The notes beneath the pieces are model-generated. The model searched no databases. It had not been told where the DNA came from and saw nothing but the letters and a program-made list of their open reading frames with translations. A stretch of 32,243 nucleotides of DNA, taken from a virus. Positions 26,160 to 32,170 of this stretch are shown here, one piece after another (within the stretch, counting starts at the first letter, position 1; each line of letters starts with the position of its first letter). The stretch spans positions 1 to 32,243 of the IMG/VR virus record IMGVR_UViG_3300033182_000187. One strand, given 5' to 3'. A program made the position numbers and the translations under genes.

Positions 26160-26167
26160 TATAAATA
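26160..26167 (+). promoter_or_regulatory. T4-type late promoter
   Basis: TATAAATA, an exact T4 late consensus, lies 34 bases before ATG 26201. It supports strong late expression of the following beta-rich gene. Confidence 0.7.
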
Positions 26168-27718: not shown

Positions 27719-28673
27719 TTCCAAATTTATTGGACTTGTATCCCCTCGACTAGAAAAGTTTAAGAGAGTAAAGGCAAATTTGTACAACTTTCGTTGTCCG
27801 ATTTGTGGTGACTCAAAGAAAAACAAGAGCAAAACACGGGGATATATCTATGGAGTAAAGGAAAATACCAACTTCAAGTGCCATAATTGTGGTGCTTCGA
27901 TGTCTCTTAACAATTTTTTGAAGCAAGTTGACCCTGCTGTTCACAAACAGTATGTCATGGAGAAGTTCAAAGGTGGTTTTACTGGGAGAAATTTCGTTTC
28001 TGAGGAACCAGAATTTAAGTTTGAGGCACCTAAGTTTAAAAGAAAACTGAAACTGCCTAAGGCATCTGAACATCCTAGATCTGCTGGATATCTTACCGCA
28101 AGGAAACTTGATCCGTCTAAATTTTATTATGCCGAACACTTTAAAAAGTTTGTAAACAGTATTAAACCAACATTTGATGACACAAAGTACGATGAAGAGA
28201 GGATAATCATTCCACTTTATTATGAAAAGAACTTAATTGGTCTCCAGGGAAGATCTATAAATCCCAGCCCTGTTAAATACATTACCGTGATGCTTGATGA
28301 TGATGCACCAAAAATCTACGGATTGGATAACATCAGAAGAGATGCTCCAGTCTACGTTACAGAAGGACCTTTCGACAGCACGTTCATTTGCAATGCGATT
28401 GCTATGTGTGGAGCTGATGCTGATGTCAGTCGTTGGGGGATTAGCAATCCTGTTTGGATCTATGATAATGAACCCCGCAACAGAGAGATTACAAACAGAA
28501 TCTCTAAGACCATTGATTCTGGTCAGTCAGTAGTCATTTGGCCTGAGAGCATAGATGACAAAGACATAAATGATATGGTAATGTCTGGACTGGATGTGCA
28601 GTCCGTGATAGAATCAAACACATACTCTGGTTTAGAAGCAAAACTTAAATTTACCACCTGGAAGAAGATATGA
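27705..28673 (+). CDS. 61: DNA primase gp61
   Basis: The primase that makes RNA primers on the lagging strand with helicase gp41. A zinc ribbon is formed by Cys31, Cys34 (CPIC), Cys59 and Cys62 (CHNC). A TOPRIM-type core follows: YVTEGPFDSTF supplies the acidic residue, and IDDKDINDMV the later acidic group. The length of 322 residues is near T4's 342. The stop overlaps the ATG of nrdA-N (ATGA), tying primer synthesis to dNTP supply. Confidence 0.93.
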   Translation: MDHIDSKFIGLVSPRLEKFKRVKANLYNFRCPICGDSKKNKSKTRGYIYGVKENTNFKCHNCGASMSLNNFLKQVDPAVHKQYVMEKFKGGFTGRNFVSEEPEFKFEAPKFKRKLKLPKASEHPRSAGYLTARKLDPSKFYYAEHFKKFVNSIKPTFDDTKYDEERIIIPLYYEKNLIGLQGRSINPSPVKYITVMLDDDAPKIYGLDNIRRDAPVYVTEGPFDSTFICNAIAMCGADADVSRWGISNPVWIYDNEPRNREITNRISKTIDSGQSVVIWPESIDDKDINDMVMSGLDVQSVIESNTYSGLEAKLKFTTWKKI

Positions 28674-30343
28674 CGAACGGCACCAAGGTTAAAAAGAGAG
28701 ACGGAAGAATTGAACCTCTTGACCTAGAAAAGATGCATTTGATGGTTGAAGAGGCAACAAAGGGTCTTGCAGGGGTCTCTGCAAGTCAAGTTGAGATCCA
28801 GTCCGGTATTCAATTTTATGACGGAATTACCACTGGTGAGATTCAAGAAATTTTGATTCGTTCTGCTTCCGACCTCATTGATCTTGATCATCCCAACTAT
28901 CAGTTTGTGGCAGCACGTCTGCTTTTGTTCAGTCTCCGTAAGAGTCTCTATGGCAAGATGAGAGAACTTCCTCATCTTGAGGCACATATCATGGACTGTA
29001 CTAACATTGATGTTTATGATAAAGAAATCTTCCTTAAGTACTCAAAGGAGGAGATTGATAAAGCAAATGGATTCATCGATCATGATCGTGATTTTCTGTT
29101 TACCTATGCTGGTCTGAGGCAGGTTGTAGATAAATACCTAGTACAGGACAGAAGTGGTGGTGGAGTTTATGAAACTCCACAGTTCATGTACATCATGATT
29201 GCCCTGACAATCTTTGCAGAATATCCTAAAGAGACACGTCTCTCATATGTCAAAAGATACTACGACGCAATCTCCAGACACAGACTCAACATTCCCACAC
29301 CTATCATGGCGGGAGTGCGAACTCCACTTCGACAATTTGCTAGCTGTGTTCTTGTTGATGTTGATGACACCCTCGATAGTATCTTTAGCTCTGATATGGC
29401 AATTGGCAAATACGTTGCACAAAGGGCGGGAATCGGTATCAACGCAGGTAGAATCCGTGGCATCAACAGTAAAATCCGAGGGGGTGAAGTTCAGCACACT
29501 GGCGTTGTTCCGTTTCTCAAGAAGTTTGAATCAACTGTCAGATGCTGTACGCAAAATGGCATCAGAGGTGGATCAGCTACGGTTCACTTTCCAATCTGGC
29601 ACCAAGAAATAGAAGACATCATTGTTCTGAAGAACAACAAAGGTACAGAAGATAACAGGGTTCGCAAACTTGACTACTCAATCCAGATTTCAAAACTTTT
29701 CTACGAACGTTTCATCACTGATGGAGAGATTAGCCTCTTCTCACCGCATGACGTACCAGGTTTATATGACGCTTTTGGTACTGATAGGTTCGATGATTTA
29801 TATGTTGGTTTTGAACGAGATGAGTCTGTTCCAAGAAAAACTATTGGGGCACAGAAACTGATCCTTGATCTTCTGAAGGAGAGAGCAGAAACTGGTCGTC
29901 TCTATATCATGAACATCGACCACTGCAATTCACACTCGTCTTTCAAGGACAAGGTTAATATGAGTAATCTTTGTGTTTCTGGTGATACTAAAATCAAAAT
30001 TAGGGTTACGACTCATAAGGAAGTTGCTGGAAAACATACTAAAACTTACAAACTTCCTTTGGAAATTGAAATGAAACAACTTGAAGAACTTATTCAAGAA
30101 GGTCTTCCTTTAGAACTTGTTGAGGTTCTTTCTCGTGATATTGACACTGGTAATCAAGAAATTGATTACCACCAAATCACTGCATTTGCTCAAACATCAC
30201 CGAAAGCAAAAGTAATGAAAATTACTGATGAGGAAAGTGGTAAGAGTATTGTTGTTACTCCAGATCATAAAGTGTATACCAAAAATCGTGGATATGTGAT
30301 GGCAAAGCACCTCAAAGAAACTGACATTCTAGATATTATTTGA
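28670..30343 (+). CDS. nrdA: Ribonucleotide reductase alpha, N-terminal part fused to N-intein half (fractured gene)
   Basis: Class Ia ribonucleotide reductase large subunit, first piece, 557 residues. Residues 1-434 are NrdA. An ATP-cone regulatory domain covers about 1-95, and Cys226 (FASCVLV) corresponds to redox Cys225 of E. coli. The extein stops after MSNL, just before the position of the thiyl-radical Cys439. Residues 435-557 are an N-terminal intein half: it begins with Cys435 (CVSGDTKIKI, splicing block A) and has block B as VVTPDHKVYT (T-x-x-H), then NRGYVMAKHLKETD. The stop comes before any block F/G, which are supplied by the ORF at 31070. It resembles the NrdA-2 split intein type known from marine metagenomes. 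Confidence 0.92.
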   Translation: MTNGTKVKKRDGRIEPLDLEKMHLMVEEATKGLAGVSASQVEIQSGIQFYDGITTGEIQEILIRSASDLIDLDHPNYQFVAARLLLFSLRKSLYGKMRELPHLEAHIMDCTNIDVYDKEIFLKYSKEEIDKANGFIDHDRDFLFTYAGLRQVVDKYLVQDRSGGGVYETPQFMYIMIALTIFAEYPKETRLSYVKRYYDAISRHRLNIPTPIMAGVRTPLRQFASCVLVDVDDTLDSIFSSDMAIGKYVAQRAGIGINAGRIRGINSKIRGGEVQHTGVVPFLKKFESTVRCCTQNGIRGGSATVHFPIWHQEIEDIIVLKNNKGTEDNRVRKLDYSIQISKLFYERFITDGEISLFSPHDVPGLYDAFGTDRFDDLYVGFERDESVPRKTIGAQKLILDLLKERAETGRLYIMNIDHCNSHSSFKDKVNMSNLCVSGDTKIKIRVTTHKEVAGKHTKTYKLPLEIEMKQLEELIQEGLPLELVEVLSRDIDTGNQEIDYHQITAFAQTSPKAKVMKITDEESGKSIVVTPDHKVYTKNRGYVMAKHLKETDILDII

Positions 30344-30344
30344 T

Positions 30345-30402
30345 TTATAGGAAGTGTAATGTCTATATTTTATAAATAGTTATGAGATTACACTTCCTAT
30401 AA
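30345..30402 (+). promoter_or_regulatory. Perfect 16-bp hairpin with late promoter in the loop, covering a start codon
   Basis: The arms 30345-30360 and 30387-30402 are perfect reverse complements. The right arm ends on the A of the endonuclease ATG. The 26-base loop contains TATAAATA (30371-30378). RNA read through from nrdA would fold and block the start codon; RNA from the loop promoter, starting near 30384, would lack the left arm. A six-codon micro-ORF with its own AGGA (ATG 30359 to TAG 30379) runs from the left arm into the promoter. Confidence 0.75.
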
Positions 30403-31076
30403 TGAAAAAATATATTGTTTATAAAATTACTAATAAGAAAAACGGAAAATCTTACATAGGAAAAACTGAATATTCTTTAGAGCATCGTTGGAATCGTCAT
30501 CTATCATTAGCAAGAAATGGTTCTAAGTTTAGATTTCATTCTGCTATTAGAAAATATGGTGAAGATTGTTGGGACTTATCTGTAATTGAAACTTATCAAA
30601 CTGATGATGAAAACTTTATCAACGAAAAAGAAACACACTTCATTAAACTTTTTGAGAGTGATACTAAAAAAGGTTATAATGCTACTTCAGGTGGAACTGG
30701 TGGATGGATGCTTCCCAGATGCTCGCAGAAGGTTCAGGAAGAGTGGAGAAACAACATTTCCGTAAGAACTACTGGTTATAATAATCCAAACTATTCTGGA
30801 CTTACTGACGAACAACTTATAGAAATAGGAATAACGTTTGCCCAAAAATATGGATTTATTGGTGGAAGGCAAAGAATAGTTCAATTTGCTCTTAATGAAT
30901 TGAATGTTAAGTTCCCAAAACATTTTTCCAAAAACAGATTCGGAGGAAACCATCAAAACTTTTATAAATGTATTGAAGAACAAACTGGATTGGTGTATAA
31001 TCCTTATTACAGAGACGAAACTCAAAGAAAACTTGCCAAACAACTTTTAGAACAAAACAGGAGAAAAAAATGTTAA
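30402..31076 (+). CDS. GIY-YIG homing endonuclease, free-standing within fractured nrdA
   Basis: A 224-residue endonuclease. The GIY-YIG domain has IVY at 5-7, YIG at 18-20, the catalytic Arg29 in LEHRWNRH and the metal-binding Glu at 75 or 77 in INEKETHFI. GYNATSGGTGG ends the catalytic domain. The C-terminal half (LTDEQLIEIGITFAQKYGF and on) is a likely DNA-binding region. It sits exactly between the two nrdA halves but is not fused to either, and probably cuts nrdA alleles lacking the insertion. Its stop overlaps the start of nrdA-C (7 bases shared). Expression is probably late, from the promoter within the upstream hairpin. Confidence 0.88.
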   Translation: MKKYIVYKITNKKNGKSYIGKTEYSLEHRWNRHLSLARNGSKFRFHSAIRKYGEDCWDLSVIETYQTDDENFINEKETHFIKLFESDTKKGYNATSGGTGGWMLPRCSQKVQEEWRNNISVRTTGYNNPNYSGLTDEQLIEIGITFAQKYGFIGGRQRIVQFALNELNVKFPKHFSKNRFGGNHQNFYKCIEEQTGLVYNPYYRDETQRKLAKQLLEQNRRKKC

Positions 31077-32170
31077 AGATTGAATATCTTGAAGAAGAAA
31101 TCCCAGTTTATGATATTACCGTAGAAGGAACTCATAATTTCTTCGCAAATGATATTCTAGTTCATAATTGCCAGGAGATTACCCTGCCTACAGATCCTAT
31201 CAACCACATTGATGATGAGTTGGGTGAGATTGCACTGTGTATTCTTTCTGCGGTTAACGTAGGAAAGGTAAGATCTGATGAAGAACTTGAGGATCTTTGT
31301 GATCTTGCTGTTCGTGGTTTGGAAGAACTGATTGATTATCAGGAGTATCCTGTGGCAGCAGCAGAACGTGCTACAAAGGCACGTAGATCTCTTGGAGTTG
31401 GTTTTATTGGTTTGGCACACTATTTGGCAAAACTGGGATATAAGTATGACTCCCAAGAGGCATGGGATGCGGTCCATGGACTGTCTGAGTCCTTTCAATA
31501 TTACCTACTGAAATCTTCAAATCAAATTGCAAAAGAGAAAGGTTGGTGTGAAAACTTTGGTCGTACCAAGTATGCTGATGGAATTCTGCCAATCGATACA
31601 TACAAAAAGGATGTTGATGAAATTTCTAGTCAGGAGTTAGTACATGATTGGGAAGGTCTTAGAGCATCTATCTCCGAACACGGATTACGGCACTCAACAC
31701 TGTCTGCTCAGATGCCATCAGAGAGCAGTTCCGTTGTGTCAAACGCAACAAATGGAATCGAGCCACCTAGAGACTATCTGTCCATTAAAAAGAGCAAAAA
31801 GGGACCACTCAAACAGATTGTCCCTCAATATGGATCTCTTAAAAATAATTATACTCTCCTTTGGGATATGGAGTCCAATCGTGGTTATATTAATGTTGTT
31901 GCTGTGATGCAGAAGTTTTTTGATCAAGCAATTTCTGGTAACTGGAGTTACAATCCTGAGCAGTATCCTGATAATGAAGTTCCAGTGTCCACCATGGCAC
32001 AAGACTTTTTGACTACATATAAGTACGGGTGGAAGACATCTTACTACCAAAACACTCACGACATGAAGAGTGATGAAGAAGTCAAGGAGGAGACCAAAGA
32101 AAGTTTAGAAAGTCTGTTAACTCAATTAGAACAAGCCGAGGAGGGAGAGTGTGAATCCTGTGCAATTTAA
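31070..32170 (+). CDS. nrdA: Ribonucleotide reductase alpha, C-intein half fused to C-terminal part (fractured gene)
   Basis: Second piece of NrdA, 366 residues, with AGGAG (31059-31063) before the ATG. Residues 1-33 are the C-terminal intein half: block F as VYDITVEGTHNFFANDIL and block G as VHN-C, with Asn33 for cyclisation and Cys34 as the +1 nucleophile. From Cys34 on is NrdA: CQEITLPTDP holds the thiyl-radical Cys and the catalytic Glu (E. coli Cys439, Glu441). Cys57 in EIALCILS matches Cys462 with identical 23-residue spacing. TSYYQNT carries the radical-transfer tyrosines, and the tail ECESCAI has the redox cysteines. Joined to residues 1-434 of the first piece this gives 767 residues, a normal NrdA length. 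Confidence 0.92.
   Translation: MLKIEYLEEEIPVYDITVEGTHNFFANDILVHNCQEITLPTDPINHIDDELGEIALCILSAVNVGKVRSDEELEDLCDLAVRGLEELIDYQEYPVAAAERATKARRSLGVGFIGLAHYLAKLGYKYDSQEAWDAVHGLSESFQYYLLKSSNQIAKEKGWCENFGRTKYADGILPIDTYKKDVDEISSQELVHDWEGLRASISEHGLRHSTLSAQMPSESSSVVSNATNGIEPPRDYLSIKKSKKGPLKQIVPQYGSLKNNYTLLWDMESNRGYINVVAVMQKFFDQAISGNWSYNPEQYPDNEVPVSTMAQDFLTTYKYGWKTSYYQNTHDMKSDEEVKEETKESLESLLTQLEQAEEGECESCAI

What the first reader, a model, noticed from the sequence alone, without database searches (positions are those of the whole stretch)
30345..30402. Late promoter inside a hairpin that hides the start codon of the nrdA-associated endonuclease
A perfect 16-bp inverted repeat ends exactly on the first base of the endonuclease ATG, with TATAAATA in the loop. 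Early read-through RNA would fold and block translation; late RNA beginning in the loop would lack the 5' arm. The same logic is established for T4 I-TevI, but there it acts in an intron. Here it would separate reductase expression (early) from endonuclease expression (late) in one operon.
Basis: partly seen in the sequence, partly recalled or inferred. Interest (0 to 1): 0.85.

Follow-up and report, generated by a model that had tools for sequence, protein, structure and literature searches.

The report
Late-promoter hairpin of an intein-split endonuclease
In a marine-type cyanophage, a DNA-cutting 'homing' gene that sits between the two halves of a protein-spliced ribonucleotide reductase gene is preceded by a hairpin that hides its start codon and carries a late promoter in its loop (a known phage design), and here the hairpin arms also copy the sequence next to the element's own insertion site, which suggests that the enzyme may shut off its own gene.

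Summary
A perfect 16-bp inverted repeat ends on the A of the GIY-YIG endonuclease ATG, with TATAAATA in its loop. It is far beyond chance, and arms and promoter motif are strongly conserved in 39 distinct relatives. The switch (read-through RNA folds and hides the start; late RNA starts in the loop) is the best explanation, but it is not new outside introns. A review (PMC2988022) describes it for free-standing segB and for Aeh1 mobE, which itself splits nrdA. Unrelated homing genes nearby (nrdA-nrdB gap, after nrdB, HNH type in Yersinia phage TG1) carry their own, mostly unrelated, late-promoter hairpins. One further point appears undescribed. The arms are inverted near-copies of nrdA sequence 6 nt downstream of the intein insertion point (GAGATTACACTTCC, exact in several intein-free and intein-bearing alleles), resembling the I-TevI autorepression operator. 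The start has no Shine-Dalgarno sequence, so the start codon itself would be hidden. No expression data exist; timing, RNA folding and autorepression are inferred. Verdict: a new variant of a known kind.

The parts
28670..30343 (+). nrdA N-extein (to 29971) fused to the N-terminal split-intein half IntN (29972-30340), then stop
   Evidence: Pfam Ribonuc_red_lgC + ATP-cone + Intein_splicing; junction located
30345..30363 (+). 5' arm of the hairpin (16 bp perfect to 30360); its reverse complement GACATTACACTTCC also resembles the nrdA sequence beside the insertion site; holds an SD-like AGGAAG
30371..30378 (+). T4-type late promoter motif TATAAATA in the loop (start site predicted near 30384)
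   Evidence: ATAAATA invariant in 45 aligned relatives; cyanophage late motif NATAAATA (PMC2984593); TATA box about one helical turn upstream of the start site (PMC2988020)
30384..30402 (+). 3' arm of the hairpin, ending on the A of the ATG; GAGATTACACTTCC copies nrdA codons E-I-T-L-P beside the insertion site: candidate autorepression operator
   Evidence: 15/19 identity to 31175-31193, best non-self match in the window; best register +6 in 46 of 48 distinct arm/site pairs
30402..31076 (+). free-standing GIY-YIG homing endonuclease gene between the intein halves (224 aa)
   Evidence: Pfam GIY-YIG 4.7e-12, PHROG homing endonuclease
31059..31064 (+). Shine-Dalgarno AGGAGA of the IntC/NrdA-C gene, inside the endonuclease coding region
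   Evidence: sequence
31070..32170 (+). IntC (31070-31168) plus nrdA C-extein, beginning C-Q-E-I-T-L-P-T; overlaps the endonuclease stop by 7 nt
   Evidence: Pfam Intein_splicing 4.8e-08 and Ribonuc_red_lgC
31175..31193 (+). presumed homing-site sequence in the C-extein, 6 nt after the intein junction, copied in the hairpin arms

Best explanation
The repeat is the control region of a homing cassette (hairpin plus GIY-YIG endonuclease gene) that lives between the two halves of a split intein in nrdA. (1) Transcripts that read through from nrdA fold the 16-bp stem, which buries the start codon and prevents endonuclease synthesis while both NrdA-intein halves are translated around it. (2) Once gp55-dependent late transcription begins, RNA polymerase starts from TATAAATA in the loop near 30384. 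That RNA lacks the 5' arm and is translated from an open, Shine-Dalgarno-less start. (3) Because both arms copy the nrdA sequence beside the insertion site, the endonuclease probably also binds them as operators flanking its late promoter and represses itself, as I-TevI does. Shown by sequence: the anatomy, conservation, family-wide recurrence and arm-to-site identity. Inferred: folding in vivo, late timing, translation without SD, autorepression. I put about 0.75 on steps 1-2 and about 0.5 on step 3.
For: Stem far beyond chance and ending on the ATG. The energy to open the start region is 20.8 kcal/mol in long RNA, against 4.9-5.7 in RNA starting at 30382-30386. The 19 other starts tested in the window need 4.9-16.7, so the long RNA is the most closed start and the late RNA among the most open. 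The heptamer is invariant and the arms are about 5-10 times more conserved than four-fold sites. The leader travels with the gene: upstream sequence diverges just 5' of the hairpin. L163 has the split intein without the endonuclease and keeps only the 5' arm as a scar. Independent late-promoter hairpins: 29 of 30 distinct leaders of a GIY-YIG gene in the nrdA-nrdB gap, 24 of 33 of one after nrdB (hairpin rate in shuffles 4/90 and 5/99), Yersinia phage TG1 HNH and Klebsiella phage KP13-7, and a second split intein in L145. A wrong-orientation control gave 2 distinct hairpins, against 51. Arms vs site: 46/48 pairs in the same register; 8-14 of 14 bases match in 35 distinct intein-free alleles, 14/14 in four. 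The T-to-A change at arm position 10 occurs only in two leaders whose site also has A (5 of 48 sites).
Against: No transcript, protein or binding data. Within this family covariation is weak: one or two pairs with double changes, not above shuffles, so pairing is supported more by conservation and by the sister families than by covariation here. No SD precedes the ATG, and the AGGAAG lies in the 5' arm, absent from late RNA. A TATAAATA at 26160 could make late read-through RNA that would also fold. The operator match is clear only for this family: KP13-7 matches 8 of 14 in the same register by eye, and TG1, Aeh1, L092 and L093 show none near the junction. Arms of the two sister families are also conserved, so sequence constraint beyond pairing is only mildly special here.
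Confidence: 0.7

Rival explanations
1. DNA operator only: the inverted repeat is two binding sites for the endonuclease (homing-site mimics) around its late promoter, and the RNA hairpin is a by-product of their inverted arrangement.
For: Arms copy the site in register; arm sequence is highly conserved with few compensatory changes; I-TevI precedent (PMC2988022).
Against: Sister homing genes keep long stems with different arm sequences, with or without compensatory changes, always near the ATG. The stem ends exactly at the start codon, as in Aeh1 mobE.
Confidence: 0.12
2. Relic: one arm is leftover nrdA exon sequence from an older insertion of the cassette, inverted and duplicated, kept only because the pair forms an RNA hairpin; no autorepression.
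For: The 3' arm reads E-I-T-L-P in frame with the endonuclease start (sequence). Operator-like matches are absent in sister families.
Against: Similarity to the site persists although the gene differs at 28% of four-fold sites, and two leaders changed at the same position as their sites.
Confidence: 0.2
3. An mRNA processing or 3'-end stabilising hairpin for the nrdA-IntN message (or a terminator), not a translation switch.
For: It sits 1 nt after the IntN stop; Aeh1 mobE RNA is processed at an RNase E-like site (PMC2988022).
Against: No U-tract and no terminator-like site here. The HEG-less intein L163 lost the hairpin. Hairpins follow homing genes wherever these lie, also after nrdB.
Confidence: 0.08

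Closest known systems
mobE of Aeromonas phage Aeh1 (Gibb & Edgell 2007, 2009, cited in PMC2988022)
   Same: Free-standing homing gene splitting nrdA; 13-bp hairpin abutting the ATG with a variant late box in the loop; known late promoter and RBS-sequestering hairpin (PMC2988022, PMC3014915).
   Different: HNH not GIY-YIG; no intein; unrelated stem sequence; GAGGG SD-like sequence in the stem; no copy of flanking nrdA sequence found.
I-TevI (and I-TevII, I-TevIII) of T4
   Same: GIY-YIG (I-TevI); late promoter and hairpin block early translation; operator resembling the homing site (15/20) overlaps the late promoter (PMC2988022).
   Different: Inside group I introns; SD sequestered; a single operator rather than two inverted copies forming the stem.
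Fractured genes with split inteins (Dassa et al. 2009; seven nrdA cases noted in PMC3653736)
   Same: nrdA broken into extein-IntN and IntC-extein.
   Different: I could not read Dassa et al. (not held); control of the inserted endonuclease gene is the new part here.
T4 segB, and T4 gene e (lysozyme)
   Same: Inhibitory RNA structure with a late promoter inside or next to it (PMC2988022, PMC3014915).
   Different: Different location; no insertion-site mimicry known to me.

Membership tests
Hairpin-regulated late homing endonuclease genes (I-TevI / segB / mobE type) | Stable stem covering the translation start in read-through RNA | tested here: met
Hairpin-regulated late homing endonuclease genes (I-TevI / segB / mobE type) | Late promoter placed so that its RNA lacks the 5' arm | tested here: met
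   By sequence only: NATAAATA in the loop of every P0001-family leader, apart from one contig truncated inside the leader; start site not mapped
Hairpin-regulated late homing endonuclease genes (I-TevI / segB / mobE type) | Sequestered Shine-Dalgarno about 8 nt before the AUG | tested here: not met
   GATTACACTTCCTATA-ATG has none; the start codon itself is sequestered
Hairpin-regulated late homing endonuclease genes (I-TevI / segB / mobE type) | Early translation repressed, late translation active | not testable with these tools
   needs infection experiments
I-TevI-type autorepressor | Operator resembling the homing site at the late promoter | tested here: met
   15/19 in the window; 46/48 pairs in register; the homing site itself is presumed from the insertion point
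I-TevI-type autorepressor | Protein binds the operator and represses | not testable with these tools
   needs purified protein
Fractured gene with split intein | IntN and IntC halves on separate ORFs, with intact intein-free alleles elsewhere | tested here: met
GIY-YIG homing endonuclease | GIY-YIG domain above the Pfam cut-off | tested here: met
   46.5 bits against cut-off 22.6
Intrinsic terminator | GC stem followed by a T run | tested here: not met

The most novel reading that the evidence does not exclude
One 58-nt palindromic element works at three levels: a late promoter, an RNA switch that hides the start codon of read-through RNA, and a pair of inverted homing-site mimics through which the endonuclease represses its own promoter. 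Because the arms copy the target site, they are under pressure to stay similar to it.
Probability: 0.42. Interest if true: 0.7.

Novelty: new variant of a known kind. Interest (0 to 1): 0.55.

Why it matters
It shows that the late-promoter-in-a-hairpin design of T4 and Aeh1 homing genes recurs in uncultured cyanophage-type viruses, around several unrelated homing genes in one nrd cluster, and inside a split-intein gene, where silence during NrdA synthesis would leave trans-splicing undisturbed. The match between hairpin arms and insertion site gives a sequence-level prediction of the enzyme's binding site and of autorepression that can be tested in vitro. It also asks how a phage start without a Shine-Dalgarno sequence is used once unmasked.

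Tried and rejected
Rfam: no match to 29900-31200 at E <= 1. Intrinsic terminator: no T run. Sigma-70 sites near the hairpin are at chance frequency. The first pair count used a mis-registered structure and was redone. A short upstream ORF overlapping the ATG (30382-30402) was considered as translational coupling and rejected: its ATG is lost in several relatives and it starts upstream of the predicted late start. The SD-like 5' arm as a hairpin-bridged SD (T4 gene 38 type) was rejected because it is itself paired. Operator-like matches for TG1, Aeh1, KP13-7, L092, L093 and the sister families gave nothing above controls. Exact-residue scans for KP13-7 relatives found none. DNA-level search of the element in named phages found none. 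Dassa 2009 and Gibb & Edgell 2009 are not held.

Full report
WHERE IT IS. The window is part of a T4-like cyanomyovirus. Its first half is collinear with Synechococcus phages S-SM2 and Bellamy at about 82-84% identity, and it encodes DNA polymerase, UvsX, helicase, primase and NrdA. nrdA is not simply next to an endonuclease gene; it is fractured. ORF 28670-30343 is the N-extein ending in MSNL plus the N half of a split intein. ORF 31070-32170 is the C half of the intein (ending HN) plus the C-extein CQEITLPT. Between them lies a 224-residue GIY-YIG homing endonuclease, 30402-31076. Intein-free alleles of the same junction exist in cultured and uncultured phages.

OBSERVATION. The inverted repeat, its coordinates, its end on the A of the ATG and TATAAATA in the loop are exactly as described. 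It is the longest inverted repeat in 32 kb. Twelve dinucleotide shuffles of the window reach 9-13 bp, against 16. Folding z-score is -5.8.

CONSERVATION. A protein search of IMG/VR returned 80 loci with relatives (103 in all). Those whose flank is held lie in the same nrdA split intein. All carry the hairpin with NATAAATA in the loop, apart from one contig truncated inside the leader. With later searches there are 39 distinct leaders. Among 45 aligned relatives, four-fold sites of the endonuclease differ by 28%, the ATAAATA heptamer by 0, the 5' and 3' arm cores by 3% and 5%, and the rest of the loop by 12%. Sequence upstream of the hairpin is unalignable, so the hairpin is the left edge of the cassette. 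L163 has the split intein without the endonuclease and retains only the 5' arm, as a deletion scar would. Covariation inside this family is weak, though L127 shows a full A-U to U-A exchange and L110 the half-way state. The hairpin of the distant KP13-7 homologue (36% protein identity) keeps the stem with two compensatory exchanges (my comparison).

THE SAME DESIGN RECURS. A scan of all fetched loci for NATAAATA inside a stem found 51 distinct hairpins, against 2 in the opposite orientation. Besides the P0001 family they precede: a GIY-YIG gene in the nrdA-nrdB gap (29 of 30 distinct leaders); a GIY-YIG gene after nrdB (24 of 33 leaders, with compensatory exchanges such as AACAAACTGAA/TTCAGTTTGTT, AAGAAACTGAA/TTCAGTTTCTT, AACAACCTGAA/TTCAGGTTGTT); a gene behind a second split intein in L145; and an HNH gene in the nrdA split intein of Yersinia phage TG1, where the stem also hides an SD. 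Two further nrdA split-intein homing genes, L092/L096 (GIY-YIG) and L093 (HNH), have hairpins at the start codon but no NATAAATA. Aeh1 mobE has a 13-bp stem abutting its ATG. Late-promoter hairpins are therefore a general property of homing genes in these nrd clusters, mostly with unrelated stem sequences. This agrees with the published rule for I-TevI, I-TevII, I-TevIII, segB and mobE (PMC2988022; PMC3014915).

MECHANISM, TRANSLATION. Opening the start region costs 20.8 kcal/mol in RNA beginning 160 nt upstream, and 4.9-5.7 in RNA beginning at 30382-30386. The 19 other starts tested need 4.9-16.7. Many of those starts have a visible SD; this one has none. The occluded element is thus the start codon region itself, unlike the T4 cases. 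The cyanophage late motif NATAAATA (PMC2984593) and the T4 box-to-start spacing of about one helical turn (PMC2988020) place the start near 30384. In this window NATAAATA is 12:0 biased to the coding strand, and several copies lie 28-65 nt before ORFs.

MECHANISM, DNA. The 3' arm GAGATTACACTTCCTATAA matches 31175-31193 in the C-extein at 15/19. This is the best non-self match in the window; 2 of 20,000 shuffled arms do as well against the 50-nt junction. Over 48 distinct arm/site pairs, 46 have their best register at +6 from the intein junction, and several sites are identical over 14 nt. In 35 distinct intein-free alleles the match is 8-14 of 14, with four exact. The 5' arm is the inverted copy. 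This parallels the I-TevI operator (15/20 identity to the homing site, overlapping the late promoter, bound and repressed but poorly cut; PMC2988022). I infer autorepression. The true homing site of this enzyme is presumed from the insertion point, not shown. The GIY-YIG enzyme and the HNH enzyme of L093 share a C-terminal domain (35% over 89 residues, E = 2e-10), which fits a shared DNA-binding module for this junction.

LIMITS. Everything on timing, folding and binding is inferred. A TATAAATA at 26160 upstream of the operon could yield late read-through RNA. The operator-like match is confined to this family, and sister-family arms are also rather conserved, so an exon relic is not excluded. 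Dassa 2009 and the primary mobE papers were not readable here.

VERDICT. Real and very probably functional. The mechanism class is known, including in nrdA. New are the split-intein setting, its wide occurrence in uncultured cyanophage-type contigs, start-codon rather than SD occlusion, and the insertion-site mimicry of the arms.

Noticed in passing
L163:2940-3005: nrdA split intein without an endonuclease gene; the short gap between the halves keeps the 5' arm TATAGGAAGTGTAATTTCTA followed by an SD for IntC: a deletion scar of the cassette.
   Followed up: partly
L090:2710-2756; L247-L326: A second GIY-YIG homing gene in the nrdA-nrdB gap with TATAAATA filling an 8-nt loop of a 15-17 bp stem; 29 of 30 distinct leaders have it.
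   Followed up: yes
L072:7367-7425; L181:6001-6059; L327-L381: A third GIY-YIG homing gene after nrdB with hairpins up to 24 bp around (N)ATAAATA and compensatory changes.
   Followed up: partly
L145:3996-5129: A second split intein in the NrdA C part, followed by a different putative endonuclease (relatives in KP13-7 and Campylobacter phages) with its own late-promoter hairpin.
   Followed up: partly
L092:2190-2290 and L096:2190-2290: A different GIY-YIG gene in the nrdA split intein with a 17-19 bp hairpin at the start codon but no T4-type late motif; another promoter class may be used.
   Followed up: no
L093:2054-3004 versus window:30402-31076: HNH and GIY-YIG enzymes at the same intein site share a C-terminal domain: apparent nuclease-domain exchange on a common DNA-binding module.
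   Followed up: partly
L168:2911-3700 (524-kb contig): nrdA interrupted without an intein just after SNLC-EVLLPT, with a GIY-YIG gene and a NATAAATA motif near a short stem, resembling the Aeh1 mobE situation.
   Followed up: no
window:26822-26863: A perfect 14-bp inverted repeat with a 14-nt loop inside the DUF7207 gene.
   Followed up: no
window:12129-12155: A perfect 12-bp stem (AAAAGTGTATCA/TGATACACTTTT, 3-nt loop) after the hsp20-like gene, possibly a bidirectional terminator.
   Followed up: no
window:30349-30363: The 5' arm is SD-like (AGGAAG or AGGGAG) in nearly all relatives while the endonuclease start has no SD; the reason is unclear.
   Followed up: no
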